Virus record (IMG/VR): IMGVR_UViG_3300043823_000105
Location: 1-35,200 of that record
Direction: 5' to 3' (one strand)
Origin: a virus
Length of the DNA: 35,200 bases
Shown here: one piece after another, positions 1-35,200 of the stretch
Layout of the letters: each line of letters starts with the position of its first letter
How positions within the stretch are numbered: the first letter of the stretch is position 1
Made by a program: the position numbers and the translations under genes
The notes under the pieces: generated by a model
What the model was told of the DNA's origin: nothing
What the model saw: only the letters and a program-made list of their open reading frames with translations
The model's database searches: none

Positions 1-127
1 TCTACTGCAAGCGCTTTAAGAGAGCTAGGGAAATTGGAAGCAAGGCTTGAAAAAGCCCCAGAACCACCTAAGCCTGCTGTGAGAAAGAGTAATGCACCGC
101 CACCTATCAATCCAATTCGAGGTGGTT
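1..127. repeat. Terminal direct repeat (left copy)
   Basis: These 127 bases are identical to 35074-35200. The reading frame of the scaffolding gene is continuous when the two copies are superimposed. A repeat of 127 bases equals a commonly used assembler k-mer length. The simplest reading is a circular contig with the overlap left in, not a biological terminal repeat. The real unit length is then 35,073 bp. Confidence 0.95.
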
Positions 128-250: not shown

Positions 251-1447
251 ATGGCTAATAATTTATTGACGATCTCAAAAATCACCAACGAAGCTTTGAT
301 GGTTTTAGAGAACGAGTTGACATTTACGTCGGAGGTCGACCGCAATTATGACGACCAATTCGCTGTAGTTGGTGGAAAGATTGGTAACACCGTGAACGTC
401 CGTAGACCTGGACGCTTTATTGGTACAACTGGACCAGCGTTGAACGTAGAAGATTTTAACGAAACATCAGTTCCCGTTACTCTCTCTACTCAATTCCATG
501 TGGACACACAATTCACAACTCAAGACTTGGCATTGTCACTCGATATGTTTAGTGACCGTGTGCTCAAGCCTGCCGTTGCTGCAATTGCCAATAAGATTGA
601 CCGTGATGGTCTGCAAATGGCTGCCCTGCAAACTGCCAACATCGTTGGTACTGCTGGAACACCTCCAACAGGATTGATCACCTACTTAACCGCTGGTGCT
701 TATCTTGATGCTGAAGGCGCACCTAGAGATGGTCGCAGAGCTTGTATCGTTGAACCCTTTACATCTGCCACAATCGTTGACAGCTTAAAAGGTCTGTTCA
801 TGCCTCAAGAAGCCATCGCAGAGCAATACCGTAAAGGTTTGATGGGTCGTGATTCTGCTGGTACAAACTGGAAATTAGACCAGAACGTGGTAAGCCAAAC
901 TTTTGGCTCCTACTCTGGTAACACATTGTCAACATCTACAACTGGACAAGTTGGATATTTGACAAGTGGTTGGGCACAATACTCCACAATCCAATTGACT
1001 GCATCTGCTGCTTCTACATTGAACGCTGGTGACGTTATCCAGATTGCTGGTCTGTACGCAACCAACCCACAAAACCGCCAAGCCTATGGTTCAGGCAAGC
1101 TCCGTAATTTCGTAGTTCAGTCAACCACAACTGTTGGTACATCTGCTACAAACATTACTGTTAGCCCTGCTATTATTGTCGGTGGTCAGTTCCAAAACAC
1201 AATCGTGATTGGTTCTACTTCTACAACCGCTACAGTTACTCCTTTCTGTAACACAGGTACTTTGTCACCACAAAATATGCTTTTCCATAGGAATGCATTT
1301 ACATTGGCAGTGGCTGACCTTGAGTTGCCAGAGGGTGTTCACTTTGCAGGTCGTGCAAGCGACAAGGAAGTGGGTCTTTCAATGCGTGTTGTTCGTCAAT
1401 ATACCATTAACGTTGCAAACGATGAAAAGTTTGCATTGGTGGCCTAA
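251..1447 (+). CDS. Major capsid protein, P22 coat-like (5' exon as an open frame)
   Basis: The open frame gives 398 residues beginning MANNLLTISKITNEAL. It has the features of the P22-type coat family: an N-terminal helix, DxFAVxGxKIGxTVNVRRPGRF, the PAVAAIANKID helix, and the late ASDKEVGLSMRVVRQYTI strand. It forms the icosahedral shell and would be assembled by the scaffold encoded just upstream. The frame stops at TAA 1445-1447 with an atypical tail (FALVA). The conserved coat C-terminus (PTRLDVLYGW...ACRI) is missing here and appears 235 nt further on, at 1686-1754, after a group I intron core. The functional protein is therefore probably 251-1431 joined to 1682-1757, about 418 residues. 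A GAAGAAAG Shine-Dalgarno lies upstream of the ATG. Capsid identity is very likely; the exact exon end is uncertain. Confidence 0.93.
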   Translation: MANNLLTISKITNEALMVLENELTFTSEVDRNYDDQFAVVGGKIGNTVNVRRPGRFIGTTGPALNVEDFNETSVPVTLSTQFHVDTQFTTQDLALSLDMFSDRVLKPAVAAIANKIDRDGLQMAALQTANIVGTAGTPPTGLITYLTAGAYLDAEGAPRDGRRACIVEPFTSATIVDSLKGLFMPQEAIAEQYRKGLMGRDSAGTNWKLDQNVVSQTFGSYSGNTLSTSTTGQVGYLTSGWAQYSTIQLTASAASTLNAGDVIQIAGLYATNPQNRQAYGSGKLRNFVVQSTTTVGTSATNITVSPAIIVGGQFQNTIVIGSTSTTATVTPFCNTGTLSPQNMLFHRNAFTLAVADLELPEGVHFAGRASDKEVGLSMRVVRQYTINVANDEKFALVA

Positions 1448-1681
1448 TACTGGAAGGTATTACGGAAAATCTTCTCTGATTGACTTGAAACTCCAGAAGT
1501 GGACAACAAGGGGCAAGCGAAAGCAGCCTGAACGACTAAGTGAGAGGACATCCCAAGGGATGATGCGATAGTCTGAACAGTGGTATAACAAAGGAAGCCA
1601 CTGAGGAAAGTCCGAAGAGACATTCCCGCCCGAAAGGGTCAGTAAGCGAAAGCTGAAAGTAACAGAGTGCAATAATGACAG
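1432..1681 (+). ncRNA. Group I self-splicing intron in the capsid gene (boundaries provisional)
   Basis: The catalytic core can be read by eye. P3 is UCUUCUC 1470-1476 with GAGAGGA 1542-1548. P7 is GACUA 1534-1538 with UAGUC 1569-1573, inside R- and S-like motifs CUGAACGACUAAG and GAUGCGAUAGUC. P8 is hairpin 1550-1561 (AUCCC/GGGAU). P9 is CAGUGG 1578-1583 with CCACUG 1598-1603. GAAA-tetraloop hairpins lie near 1630-1640 and 1648-1656. The last base G1681 fits the terminal guanosine, and CA before it can pair with UG 1574-1575 (P9.0). There is no internal ORF. The 5' site is ambiguous. U1431 restores the capsid frame (KF-IPTRLDVLYGW). The best P1 hairpin (UAAUACU 1445-1451 with GGUAUUA 1456-1462, U-G at 1451/1456) would place it at 1451. 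Confidence 0.85.
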
Positions 1682-1757
1682 CATACCGACACGACTTGAT
1701 GTACTTTATGGTTGGGCACCGCTCTATCCTGAACTTGCTTGCCGTATCGCAGCTTAA
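1682..1757 (+). CDS. Major capsid protein, 3' exon
   Basis: In the frame ending at TAA 1755-1757 this encodes IPTRLDVLYGW followed by APLYPELACRIAA. That is the characteristic C-terminus of P22-type coat proteins (xRLDVLYGWxxLYPELACRI). No start codon or ribosome site belongs to it, and it follows directly on the group I intron. Joining C1682 to U1431 keeps the phase (TT|C, Phe). It lies 18 nt before the next gene. If splicing occurs elsewhere, this would be a relic exon. Confidence 0.82.
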
Positions 1758-8520: not shown

Positions 8521-9099
8521 ATGTACACAAAAGAAGAAGCTCAACAGAGAAAACGTGACAGAGATAACGCAGCGTATGCAAGAAAAGTTGGAAGGCCAGT
8601 TGGCAACACGGGAAGACCAGCAAACACACCAGATGTGTTGTGGTCTAAGGTAGATAAAAAAGGTGAAGACGAATGTTGGAATTGGTTAGGTTATAAAAAT
8701 AATGAGGGATATGGTAGAACTTGGATAAATGATCGAGGTTACTACGCACACAGAGTTATTTTTAATTTAGCCTTTCCAGGTGTGATTGAGTTGAACGCTC
8801 CCAAGTCAACGGATGATGTTGGATTTTTATTGCACACTTGCGATAATCCATCATGTTGTAATCCAAAGCATTTGTGGGTGGGTAATCATGCTGACAACAT
8901 GGCAGATAAAGTTGCTAAAGGAAGATCACCAGACTTTAGTGGCGATAAAGGACCAAGGGCTAAATTGTCAATGAGTCAGGCAAGAGAGGCTAGAGAATTA
9001 AGAAAGAACGGTATGAGCACAAGAGATTTAGCTAAAAAATTTGGATTAAGCCTGCCAAGCATGAAAACATTGATTAGAGGCGACTCTTACAAGGAATAA
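8521..9099 (+). CDS. Free-standing HNH homing-type endonuclease
   Basis: 192 residues. The N-terminus is basic with GRPVGNTGRPA (AT-hook-like, residues 24-34). Residues 50-135 are an HNH_3-type core: ECWNWLGYKNNEGYG, AHRVIF, LLHTCDNPSCCNPKHLWVG, HADNMADKVAKGR. Residues 148-188 form a helix-turn-helix (STRDLAKKFGLSLPSMKTLI). It would cut DNA at a specific site and copy itself into neighbours. It sits between two tail accessory genes with no structural role, as homing endonucleases do, behind a strong AAAGGAG ribosome site. It could also move the ORF-less capsid intron in trans, which is speculative. Confidence 0.88.
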   Translation: MYTKEEAQQRKRDRDNAAYARKVGRPVGNTGRPANTPDVLWSKVDKKGEDECWNWLGYKNNEGYGRTWINDRGYYAHRVIFNLAFPGVIELNAPKSTDDVGFLLHTCDNPSCCNPKHLWVGNHADNMADKVAKGRSPDFSGDKGPRAKLSMSQAREARELRKNGMSTRDLAKKFGLSLPSMKTLIRGDSYKE

Positions 9100-21612: not shown

Positions 21613-21805
21613 CGTTGTCCTCGACTATCCATTTACGCATCTCGTTTGATCTACGGTATCCCAGAGCCTTATACAGGGTAGGAGCGGTGTTTTTAACCTC
21701 TGCGAATACCTTGGGTAGTCTATTGTGTACAGGATACTTAGAACGCATTAGTTTGGTTTTTACGGGCCAGGGTGGTACTGGTTGCCAGATTGTTTTAATT
21801 TCCAT
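21605..21805 (-). CDS. Small basic early protein
   Basis: 66 residues (MEIKTIWQPVPPWPVKTKLMRSKYPVHNRLPKVFAEVKNTAPTLYKALGYRRSNEMRKW). Proline-rich, then basic. It starts within the last codons of the methyltransferase frame. Possible DNA- or protein-binding role, not demonstrable. Confidence 0.6.
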   Translation of the reverse strand: MEIKTIWQPVPPWPVKTKLMRSKYPVHNRLPKVFAEVKNTAPTLYKALGYRRSNEMRKWIVEDNDV

Positions 21806-23024
21806 TTAAGATTCTCCATGCGGTTGCTGCACATAATGGGACTTGTCCATTTCCAATGGCTTTAAGTCTGTCCATTCCTGCTATTTTTGTGCCACTAACT
21901 CTGGGAATGATCTGCGCTTCATCCATGCCAATTTGTTCCCACATTCCCGACTGCAAGTTTTCTCTCTTGCTCTCTTGTATGTGAACTGAATCCCGCAATA
22001 AAGACAAATCCTCTCCTTGGTGTGATCTTTCCATCTTTCGTTGGCGTGCAATGTCCCATGACATATCTGACAAAGAATCGCTATGTTGGATTTCTGATTG
22101 TTGAATGGGTTGTGATCCAAGTGGTGTCTGTGAAGGGTCTGAGTTCCACCACATCGTTCGCATTTGTCCAAAATTTTGTATAGCCGTTGCGCTTTCCTGT
22201 GTCCAGCGTTCAAATTCTTTTTTGTTAAATCCATTTATTTCACTCCATTTGATAGGCCAATTCATAAGCCATTCTACCCAATCCGGATTGAGTTTTCCAG
22301 AATTAGGATGAGCAACCATAGACAAATTTAATTGTTTCCCTTTTTCTGCTCTACGTTGAATTGCAGGGTTACTCATGTTACCCCTATCCCTACAATCCGA
22401 TGCTTGAGGTGTTGGAAACATCCTGTCCCGAACCGCTTGGTTGATGGAATATTGAGCTGAATGACCCGATTTGCGCTTGGGTGTCCAATTCTCCTGAGTT
22501 CCCCGCATTCCACAGTTTGCATCTGGTGTAGGCCATGTTTGTTCCGACAATCCAGATCCTGTCCCTCTGATGGTTTGCTCCAACGTCTGCCGCTCCCAAC
22601 ACTCCCCATTTCGCATCAAACCCCATTGAGGCCAAGTCTCCGAGAACTCGTCCAAGCCCCCTAGAAGTGAGCATTGGTGAGTTCTCCACAAAGACGTATC
22701 TGGGTCGTACTTCACGAATGATCCGTGCCATTTCTCCCCACATTCCTGAGCGTTCTCCATCAATTCCTGCTCCTTTTCCTGCAGCACTAATGTCCTGACA
22801 TGGAAAGCCACCACTGATGACATCAACAACTCCTCGCCAGGGATGTCCGTCAAAGGTTTGTACGTCATCCCAAATCGGGAAAGGCGGGAGAAGACCGTCA
22901 TTTTGTCGGGCGCACAGTACGCTTGCTGGGTAGGGTTCCCACTCAACTGCACAGACTGTTCTCCATCCAAGGAGTTTGCCTCCAAGTATTCCTCCACCAG
23001 CGCCTGCGAAAAGAGCCAACTCAT
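21795..23024 (-). CDS. C5-methyltransferase second frame: recognition region and motif X (beta-subunit-like)
   Basis: 409 residues, starting four bases after the alpha frame and overlapping it for about 630 nt. Residues 105-170 (KYDPDTSLWRTHQCSLLGG, DEFSETWPQWGLMRNGECWE, TWPTPDA) and LNPDWVEWLMNWPIKWSEI resemble a conserved phage family that accompanies Dcm-like enzymes. The end GMDRLKAIGNGQVP + LCAATAW is C5-methyltransferase motif X, absent from the alpha frame. Known precedents are M.EcoHK31I and M.AquI, where motifs are split between overlapping genes. Residues about 264-382 also overlap an HNH gene in another frame. The N-terminal 100 residues may be partly a shadow. Confidence 0.7.
   Translation of the reverse strand: MSWLFSQALVEEYLEANSLDGEQSVQLSGNPTQQAYCAPDKMTVFSRLSRFGMTYKPLTDIPGEELLMSSVVAFHVRTLVLQEKEQELMENAQECGEKWHGSFVKYDPDTSLWRTHQCSLLGGLDEFSETWPQWGLMRNGECWERQTLEQTIRGTGSGLSEQTWPTPDANCGMRGTQENWTPKRKSGHSAQYSINQAVRDRMFPTPQASDCRDRGNMSNPAIQRRAEKGKQLNLSMVAHPNSGKLNPDWVEWLMNWPIKWSEINGFNKKEFERWTQESATAIQNFGQMRTMWWNSDPSQTPLGSQPIQQSEIQHSDSLSDMSWDIARQRKMERSHQGEDLSLLRDSVHIQESKRENLQSGMWEQIGMDEAQIIPRVSGTKIAGMDRLKAIGNGQVPLCAATAWRILNGN
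21881..22234 (-). CDS. HNH endonuclease nested inside the methyltransferase gene
   Basis: 117 residues: CERC at 25-28, HRHHLDHNPFNNQKSNIAILCQICHGTLH (35-63, full HNH core) and a second zinc pair CLYC/CSREC (77-98). A GGAG ribosome site lies nine bases before the ATG. It lies wholly within the 409-residue frame at 21795-23024, in a different frame. The flanking host sequences are WPIKWSEI before and motif X after. This is the layout of a homing endonuclease inserted in a conserved gene. Too little room is left for a ribozyme core. Confidence 0.86.
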   Translation of the reverse strand: MDLTKKNLNAGHRKAQRLYKILDKCERCGGTQTLHRHHLDHNPFNNQKSNIAILCQICHGTLHANERWKDHTKERICLYCGIQFTYKRAREKTCSRECGNKLAWMKRRSFPELVAQK

Positions 23025-23028
23025 TCAT
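22390..23028 (-). CDS. C5-cytosine DNA methyltransferase, catalytic frame (alpha-subunit-like)
   Basis: 212 residues. Motif I is FAGAGG (7-12). Motif IV is GGFPCQD with nucleophile C77. Motif VI is VENSP (114-118). Motif VIII is QRDRIWIV (154-161). SAM binding and catalysis are covered, but the frame stops before the recognition domain and motifs IX-X. Those lie in the overlapping -strand frame to 21795. It methylates cytosine in phage DNA, protecting it from host restriction. The start is in ATGA overlap with the upstream gene. Either it works as a split enzyme or it is a truncated, frameshifted gene. Confidence 0.88.
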   Translation of the reverse strand: MNELALFAGAGGGILGGKLLGWRTVCAVEWEPYPASVLCARQNDGLLPPFPIWDDVQTFDGHPWRGVVDVISGGFPCQDISAAGKGAGIDGERSGMWGEMARIIREVRPRYVFVENSPMLTSRGLGRVLGDLASMGFDAKWGVLGAADVGANHQRDRIWIVGTNMAYTRCKLWNAGNSGELDTQAQIGSFSSIFHQPSGSGQDVSNTSSIGL

Positions 23029-34413: not shown

Positions 34414-35200
34414 ATGTCAAGTGAGAGAGAAGCAAGTAACGTAGTTACAAGCGAGAATCTGGGTGAGTTCATGGCGAACAAGCTCGGTTTAGCTACTGAA
34501 CCCGAAGTCGTTGAGGAAACTCCGATTGTTGAGGAACAGCAGAGTGAACCAGAGCAACCCAAACCAGTAGAGGAGGGTGAGAAAAAGCCCAATCCGAAAC
34601 TTGAAAGACGTTTTTCTGAGTTAACGAAGCAACGTGAATTGGCTCGTCAGGAAGCTGAACGAGAGCGTCAAAGAGCTAGTGAATTAGAAGCACGTTTATC
34701 GGCTCTTGAGACTAAGAATCAGCCTGTGAAGGTCGAGGACAAGAATAGAGAGCCACAGCCGAGCGATTTTACCGATGCGTTTGAATATGCAAAAGCATTG
34801 GCAGAATACTCGACTGCTAAAGCGCTTGAGAACAGGGATAGAGCAGAAGCTGAACGCAAAGCTAACGAAGAACGCCAGAAAGTTATGACCTCTTGGCAGA
34901 CTAAGTTAGAAGCAGCGAAAAGTGAACTGCCTGATTATGAGGAAATGATTGCATCTAGCGATGTGGTTGTATCCGACCAAATCAGGGACGCTATTTTAGA
35001 GAGCGATGTCGGACCACAGATTCTTTACCATCTGGCTGAGAATCCCGAAATTGCCCAAAAGATTAGCGGATTATCTACTGCAAGCGCTTTAAGAGAGCTA
35101 GGGAAATTGGAAGCAAGGCTTGAAAAAGCCCCAGAACCACCTAAGCCTGCTGTGAGAAAGAGTAATGCACCGCCACCTATCAATCCAATTCGAGGTGGTT
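34414..35200 (+). CDS. Scaffolding protein, N-terminal part (continues at 1-219)
   Basis: Open to the contig end and continuing in frame at position 1. Total about 292 residues. The N-terminus is acidic (EPEVVEETPIVEEQQSEPEQP), then basic coiled coil (ERRFSELTKQRELARQEAERERQRASELEARL). An AlaGlu-rich helix follows around DFTDAFEYAKALAEYSTAKAL, with ILYHLAENPEIAQKI further on. The helical, charged composition, with a basic end, fits a P22-type scaffolding protein. It lies between portal and capsid genes, the usual place. Confidence 0.87.
   Translation, partial: MSSEREASNVVTSENLGEFMANKLGLATEPEVVEETPIVEEQQSEPEQPKPVEEGEKKPNPKLERRFSELTKQRELARQEAERERQRASELEARLSALETKNQPVKVEDKNREPQPSDFTDAFEYAKALAEYSTAKALENRDRAEAERKANEERQKVMTSWQTKLEAAKSELPDYEEMIASSDVVVSDQIRDAILESDVGPQILYHLAENPEIAQKISGLSTASALRELGKLEARLEKAPEPPKPAVRKSNAPPPINPIRGG
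35074..35200. repeat. Terminal direct repeat (right copy)
   Basis: Identical to 1-127. The contig is a circular assembly or circularly permuted genome whose overlap was not trimmed. Confidence 0.95.

What the first reader, a model, noticed from the sequence alone, without database searches (positions are those of the whole stretch)
1432..1681. Group I intron interrupts the major capsid gene near its 3' end
The capsid frame stops at 1447 with an odd tail, yet the conserved coat C-terminus (IPTRLDVLYGW...ACRI) reappears at 1683-1754. Between them lie P3, P7, P8 and P9 of a group I core plus two GAAA hairpins. Self-splicing introns in the coat gene of a P22-like phage are uncommon. Without splicing the coat would lack about 24 conserved residues, so splicing could limit capsid output. 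The intron is ORF-less and compact.
Basis: partly seen in the sequence, partly recalled or inferred. Interest (0 to 1): 0.88.

Follow-up and report, generated by a model that had tools for sequence, protein, structure and literature searches.

The report
Group I intron in phage coat gene
The coat-protein gene of this virus of bacteria is split by a compact RNA that should cut itself out of the message, and it belongs to a large, overlooked family of such introns that has invaded at least 11 different points of this gene and sits mostly in virus shell genes.

Summary
The finding is real, but its borders were misplaced. A 262-nt ORF-less group I intron splits the P22-like coat gene at window 1408-1669, not 1432-1681. 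Removing it gives a 414-residue coat ending TINNDSIPTRLDVLYGW...CRIAA, as in intron-less relatives. Unspliced message gives 387 native residues plus an 11-residue odd tail. The splice-site U.G pair, guide helices P1 and P10, terminal G and a P3-P9 core are all present. In 59 relatives, 95.8% of pair cells hold and 35 of 49 pairs change on both sides. Rfam RF00028 misses the intron, but T4 td, T4 nrdB and the RT-PCR-proven LittleE capsid intron also fall below its cut-off.

Capsid-gene introns were already known. What looks unreported in the papers I could search is the pattern: at least 11 sites in this one gene, up to three per gene, in 14 of 65 complete coat genes chosen without regard to introns. 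A gene-blind scan found 138 family introns on 122 contigs, about 86-88% in major capsid genes of several families. The guide region is site-specific, 3' halves are swapped between sites, and introns spread independently of host exons. Splicing itself was not observed; that it limits capsid output is untested.

The parts
251..1407 (+). exon 1 of the P22-like major coat gene (385 codons + 2 nt)
   Evidence: PF11651 E 1.5e-29, phrog_283 E 1e-65; continuous in intron-less relatives
1408..1669 (+). group I intron, 262 nt, no homing endonuclease ORF
   Evidence: blind splice-site search; CM R1 203 bits, E 4e-47 over 1466-1669
1670..1757 (+). exon 2 of the coat gene, 28 codons plus the end of the split codon, and stop
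   Evidence: NNDSIPTRLDVLYGWAPLYPELACRIAA matches intron-less relatives
1404..1442 (+). P1: exon CCAU 1404-1407 (extended by 1408-1410) with IGS 1436-1442 (UUGGUGG); U1407.G1439 at the 5' splice site; extension hairpin 1415-1420/1429-1434
   Evidence: direct from sequence; script P1 finder; extension stem keeps pairing through C-G to U-A change in L027 and L065
1443..1465 (+). P2 hairpin (1443-1450/1457-1465, one bulge)
   Evidence: MFE and centroid fold
1470..1476 (+). P3 5' strand, pairs with 1542-1548
   Evidence: 6 of 7 pairs with changes on both sides, 97.6% paired in 59 introns
1542..1548 (+). P3 3' strand
   Evidence: as above
1484..1510 (+). P4 (1484-1487/1507-1510) and P5 (1492-1495/1500-1503)
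   Evidence: P4 100% paired but nearly invariant; P5 covaries
1511..1529 (+). P6 (1511-1514/1526-1529) and P6a (1517-1518/1523-1524)
   Evidence: 5 of 6 pairs with changes on both sides, 100% paired
1534..1573 (+). P7 (1534-1538/1569-1573), the strand pair that crosses P3
   Evidence: GACUA/UAGUC in all 59 sequences; invariant, so no covariation signal
1549..1562 (+). P8 hairpin
   Evidence: outer 5 pairs all show changes on both sides
1579..1638 (+). P9 (1579-1583/1598-1602), P9.1 (1605-1612/1619-1626), P9.2 (1629-1631/1636-1638)
   Evidence: 95-100% of cells paired, strong covariation in P9 and P9.1
1669..1669 (+). omega-G, last intron base
   Evidence: G at the 3' splice site at all 11 coat-gene sites; the search required a G
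1670..1673 (+). P10: exon-2 CAAU pairs with IGS AUUG 1435-1438
   Evidence: script P10 count = 4

Best explanation
Window 1408-1669 is a group I self-splicing intron in a P22-like coat gene. Inferred steps: the late transcript folds into the P3-P9 ribozyme; the exon end CCAU is held by the internal guide sequence (P1, U.G); a guanosine bound in P7 attacks after U1407; the freed exon attacks after G1669 with P10 aligning exon 2; the ligated mRNA encodes the 414-residue coat. Shown here by sequence: the fold (covariation), the P1/P10/U/omega-G anatomy, exact restoration of the conserved reading frame, and intron-less alleles. Also shown: the intron belongs to a family that spreads horizontally as site-specific lineages, with a shared core and swapped 3' halves. 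How an intron with no ORF moves is inferred: a homing endonuclease in trans, or guide-directed reverse splicing. The 15-nt shift between site 386 and site 391, with the same CCAU target, favours the latter for that step.
For: Spliced coat matches intron-less relatives across the junction. Covariation: 35 of 49 pairs with changes on both sides, 95.8% paired, score 0.536 vs 0.156 shuffled. The same anatomy recurs at 11 coat-gene sites, each restoring frame. R1 finds no intron in 73 uninterrupted coat loci. The P1-P2 region is 100% and the P3-P7 core 92% identical to L072, while the coat exons of the two are only about 60-75% identical over most of their length, so the intron moved horizontally. 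Exon identity rises only within about 28 nt of the site. A similar capsid intron is spliced in mycobacteriophage LittleE by RT-PCR (PMC3706429).
Against: No RNA evidence. Rfam RF00028 gives no hit even at E<=5, although known phage group I introns also score under its cut-off. The window carries an A where its relatives have G just after P4, effect unknown. P7 is invariant, so its pairing is not independently tested. The model relates only weakly to the T4 nrdB intron (7.5 bits, E 0.84). The blind splice-site search presupposed a U before and a G at the end of the intron.
Confidence: 0.93

Rival explanations
1. The insertion is a dead intron remnant; the phage uses the 398-residue truncated coat or is itself defective.
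For: No splicing data; one base differs from the family consensus just after P4; the unspliced ORF is open to 1447.
Against: All core pairs intact and 203 bits to the family model; the lost C-terminus lies in the most conserved part of the gene (7-codon conservation 0.99-1.00 at sites 383-391); exon 2 is intact and in frame; the 11-residue tail is intron sequence that forms the P1 extension hairpin and keeps pairing through compensatory change.
Confidence: 0.05
2. The intron is a regulatory switch: incomplete splicing makes both a 414- and a 398-residue coat, tuning capsid output.
For: Unspliced message would encode 387 native residues plus a short tail, and similar tails (ANDxxFALVA) occur at site 386 in L027, L065 and L072.
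Against: Most relatives have no intron at this site and dispense with it; the tail's conservation is explained by the RNA hairpin; introns at other sites of the same gene give unrelated tails.
Confidence: 0.08
3. The insertion is another kind of element (group II intron, intein, bypassed gap or assembly artefact).
For: Rfam gives no group I hit.
Against: No group II hit in the same Rfam scans; the in-frame stop at 1445-1447 rules out an intein; the group I core covaries in 59 relatives; a related intron occurs at the same site in about eight other contigs.
Confidence: 0.02

Closest known systems
Mycobacteriophage LittleE major capsid intron (PMC3706429)
   Same: Intron, most likely group I according to its authors, in a phage major capsid gene; exon ends in U, intron ends in G; spliced by RT-PCR
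   Different: Carries an endonuclease ORF, infects mycobacteria, not recognised by model R1, one site in one gene
BAKA/Optimus tail-gene intron (PMC3706429)
   Same: About 265 nt, ORF-less, in a virion gene, splicing confirmed
   Different: Tail gene; no relationship tested here
Lactococcal phage Tuc2009 capsid intron (cited in PMC3706429)
   Same: Intron in a capsid gene
   Different: Known only through citation; sequence not compared
T4 td and nrdB introns
   Same: Phage group I introns; nrdB aligns weakly in the P7-P9 part (7.5 bits)
   Different: Carry endonuclease ORFs; in nucleotide-metabolism genes; only marginal similarity
Jug phage group I introns (PMC12363816)
   Same: Short group I introns (mean about 206 nt), many per genome, more than one per gene, partly confirmed in metatranscriptomes
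   Different: Huge gut phages; terL, nrdD and polymerase genes stressed; sequence relationship not tested
Nitratidesulfovibrio phage SRB7757 (PV062637, locus L206)
   Same: Family member at 113 bits
   Different: Host gene not determined; record has no annotation

Membership tests
Group I intron | Core helices P3-P9 with P3/P7 crossing | tested here: met
   P3, P5, P6, P8, P9 and P9.1 covary; P4 nearly invariant and P7 invariant but paired in all 59
Group I intron | 5' exon ends in U, paired with G of an internal guide (P1) | tested here: met
   Window U1407.G1439; P1 of 3-8 pairs at 11 sites. The search required a T, so the U is presupposed, but the restored frame is not
Group I intron | Last intron base is G | tested here: met
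   G1669; same at 11 sites, with the same reservation
Group I intron | P10 between guide and 3' exon | tested here: met
   4 pairs in the window; weak (1 pair) at some other sites, e.g. 52, 86, 391
Group I intron | Removal restores the host reading frame; intron-less alleles exist | tested here: met
Group I intron | Match to Rfam RF00028 (a database criterion, not a structural one) | tested here: not met
   No hit at gathering or E<=5; controls T4 td 40.3, T4 nrdB 35.7 and LittleE 30.7 bits are also under the 50-bit cut-off, so this is a limit of the model rather than a defining feature
Group I intron | Self-splicing in vitro or splicing in vivo | not testable with these tools
   No RNA data held
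Known group I subgroup (IA-IE) | Match to a subgroup covariance model (GISSD) | not testable with these tools
   Subgroup models not available here
Endonuclease-mobile group I intron | Homing endonuclease ORF inside the intron | tested here: not met
   No endonuclease-like ORF in the ORF list of 1408-1669; some family members do carry one (L199, L160)

The most novel reading that the evidence does not exclude
The intron is one member of a capsid-specialised group I subfamily, invisible to Rfam, that repeatedly enters new sites of the same coat gene by guide-directed reverse splicing (5 of 11 sites share CCGU and 2 share CCAU before the cut) and evolves by swapping 3' halves between sites. Phage shell genes would then be a main habitat of ORF-less group I introns.
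Probability: 0.3. Interest if true: 0.8.

Novelty: new member of a known kind. Interest (0 to 1): 0.57.

Why it matters
Phage group I introns are described as preferring nucleotide-synthesis and DNA-metabolism genes (PMC12350094). Here a gene-blind scan puts about 86-88% of a large family into major capsid genes, and one coat gene has at least 11 occupied sites with intron-less alleles beside them. That makes the questions of how ORF-less introns move, and why highly expressed shell genes tolerate them, directly testable. In practice, coat genes of these phages are being annotated as truncated or split: MW202674.1 lists the coat as two 'P22 coat protein' genes with a hypothetical protein between.

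Tried and rejected
Rfam at gathering and E-value thresholds gave only chance hits, including a tmRNA fragment overlapping the intron start; rejected as a refutation after the T4/LittleE control. The first T4 fetch missed td. A first automatic site mapping gave false sites for introns with short 5' parts or close neighbours and was redone with wider limits. A search for a spliced junction at site 109 found nothing. Paper searches for sample 3300024541 found nothing. HNH genes in the window (8521-9099, 21881-22234) were considered as trans-acting mobilisers; nothing links them to the coat intron.

Full report
WHAT IS THERE. The window is a complete phage record: its first and last 127 bases are identical. 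The coat ORF 251-1447 is a P22-like coat protein (PF11651 E 1.5e-29, phrog_283 E 1e-65), with a P22-like portal (E 1.7e-170) and a terminase on the same strand. The frame ends in ...QYTIN-VANDEKFALVA-stop. Eighty relatives were fetched from IMG/VR. Most run uninterrupted through this point as ...RQYTINNDSIPTRLDVLYGWAPLYPELACRIAA. Aligning them to the window fixes the borders: exon 1 ends ACC AT at 1407, exon 2 starts C AAT AAT GAC AGC ATA CCG at 1670, and the spliced product is 414 aa. A blind search over all U-ending 5' sites and G-ending 3' sites gave the same answer.

GROUP I ANATOMY. P1 is CCAU/GUGG with U1407.G1439 at the cut, extended by UAA/UUG and by a hairpin whose stem keeps pairing through a C-G to U-A change in L027 and L065. 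The guide continues into P10 (AUUG with exon-2 CAAU). P2 is predicted at 1443-1465. From P3 to the 3' end, 59 related introns were aligned. With P3, P4, P5, P6, P7, P8, P9, P9.1 and P9.2 written as a pseudoknotted structure, 95.8% of cells pair. 35 of 49 pairs change on both sides in at least one sequence, and 604 cells carry double changes against 173 expected in shuffles. The covariation score is 0.536, against 0.156 for shuffles and at most 0.107 for slid versions. P7 is invariant, so it adds no covariation. A covariance model without the pseudoknot (R1) scores the window at 203 bits (the window is a training sequence) and finds nothing at E<=1 in 73 intron-less coat loci.

RFAM DOES NOT SEE IT. 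No RF00028 match at gathering score or at E<=5, nor in nine related loci at gathering score. As a control, T4 td (40.3 bits), T4 nrdB (35.7) and the LittleE capsid intron (30.7) are also under the 50-bit gathering score, although each is found at E<=0.001. The negative result is therefore a limit of that model for phage introns, and this family is still further from it. R1 aligns to the T4 nrdB intron only marginally (7.5 bits, E 0.84) and to a Nitratidesulfovibrio phage intron strongly (113 bits).

THE SAME GENE IS INVADED AT 11 SITES. In the P22-like coat gene the insertion points, as window codon/phase, are 39/2, 40/2, 48/2, 52/0, 86/0, 109/2, 205/2, 354/2, 383/0, 386/2 (the window) and 391/2; each insertion has U before, G at the end, a P1 of at least 3 pairs, and an in-frame spliced coat. 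The search demanded U and G, so the independent evidence is the restored frame plus P1. Contigs L081 and L093 each carry three introns in one coat gene. MW202674.1, an annotated genome, has one at codon 86 and its coat is recorded as two separate genes.

HOW COMMON. To sample without regard to introns, 80 loci were fetched by the upstream gene, 34414 onward (scaffold by position). Of those with a complete coat gene, 51 are uninterrupted and 14 have one or two introns: 14 of 65. None of those 14 uses the window's site.

WHICH GENES. In the gene-blind pattern scan, 138 introns lie on 122 contigs. 57 introns are in this coat gene and 1 in a distant P22-like coat. 28 are in N4-gp56 major capsid genes (TIGR04387) plus 4 tentative; 28 in podovirus-type major head genes (phrog_9953/NF033394, 6 of them weak matches); 3 in phrog_267 and 1 in phrog_1328 head genes; 5 in tape-measure, 4 in portal, 2 in terminase, 2 in ribonucleotide reductase genes; and 3 are unassigned. 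That is 118-122 of 138 in major capsid genes. Some N4-type loci have five or more R1 matches in a row (L115, L194), the weakest near E 3e-4.

HOW THEY SPREAD. Among 51 distinct coat introns the P1-P2 region is 82% identical within a site and 21% between sites. The core is 86% and 73%, the 3' part 76% and 63%. The guide end thus belongs to the site, while the ribozyme and 3' part are shared and recombine. The window intron is 100% identical in P1-P2 and 92% in the core to L072, but only 65% in the 3' part, whose best match (79%) is from site 109. Coat exons of the window and the other site-386 carriers are no more alike than intron-less pairs (about 75% nt) except within about 28 nt of the insertion, where identity rises to 0.93/0.83 against 0.82/0.68. 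This indicates horizontal movement. The exception to site-specific guides is site 391: its P1-P2 is 85% identical to the site-386 lineage, it uses the same CCAU, and it lies 15 nt downstream. The 5' exon ends in CCGU at five of 11 sites and CCAU at two; by a simple binomial on T positions P is about 1e-8, but the sites are not fully independent. The sites are also in more conserved codons than random (P about 0.01). These facts fit guide-directed reverse splicing or endonuclease targeting of conserved sequence; they do not decide between them.

PRECEDENT. [quoted passage not shown] A 2025 study states that phage group I introns prefer nucleotide and DNA metabolism genes (PMC12350094). I found no open-access paper describing multi-site intron invasion of capsid genes; subscription papers and preprint servers could not be searched.

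WHAT IS NOT SHOWN. No RNA was seen. One contig, L286 (sample 3300024541), carries the exact empty junction with flanks otherwise seen only in intron-bearing alleles. I recall that sample series as metatranscriptomes but could not verify it, so it is a lead and not evidence of splicing. Regulation of capsid output is speculation.

Noticed in passing
window 1-127 and 35074-35200: The first and last 127 bases are identical, so the window is a complete circular or terminally redundant phage record.
   Followed up: yes
L286 (IMGVR_UViG_3300024541_000208): Only IMG/VR contig with the exact intron-free junction CAATATACCATCAATAATGACAGCAT; flanks match intron-bearing alleles, not other intron-less ones. 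Possibly a spliced transcript if the sample is a metatranscriptome; it also has a frameshift at a C-run.
   Followed up: partly
L115 5488-7305; L120 5406-7064; L194 488-2487; L193; L162; L185: N4-gp56-type major capsid loci with three to seven consecutive R1 matches, i.e. capsid genes apparently cut into many short exons.
   Followed up: partly
L107, L120, L154, L194: Introns whose P6 loop seems to hold a small ORF starting at about ...CAAGGGGCAAAATTATG; the P4/P6 strand could double as a ribosome-binding site. One ORF is DUF551 (E 5e-5), the others unassigned.
   Followed up: partly
L199 7260-8261; L160 2874-5076: Family members with endonuclease ORFs: an endonuclease-like ORF (LAGLIDADG_1 in Pfam, E 8e-4; labelled HNH in PHROGs, E 5e-30) and a GIY-YIG (E 1.8e-11), showing that some lineages have their own mobility enzyme.
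   Followed up: partly
window 21795-23028, - strand: Two long overlapping ORFs in different frames: a Dcm-like cytosine methylase N-terminus (22390-23028) and a 409-aa ORF (21795-23024), with an HNH-like ORF (21881-22234) also overlapping.
   Followed up: no
window 8521-9099: Free-standing HNH / His-Me endonuclease with a helix-turn-helix between structural genes; sub-threshold Pfam matches.
   Followed up: partly
L201 (CAIKYO010000443.1): A Burkholderiales metagenome-assembled genome holds a contig with this coat gene and a site-109 intron, hinting at the host group.
   Followed up: no
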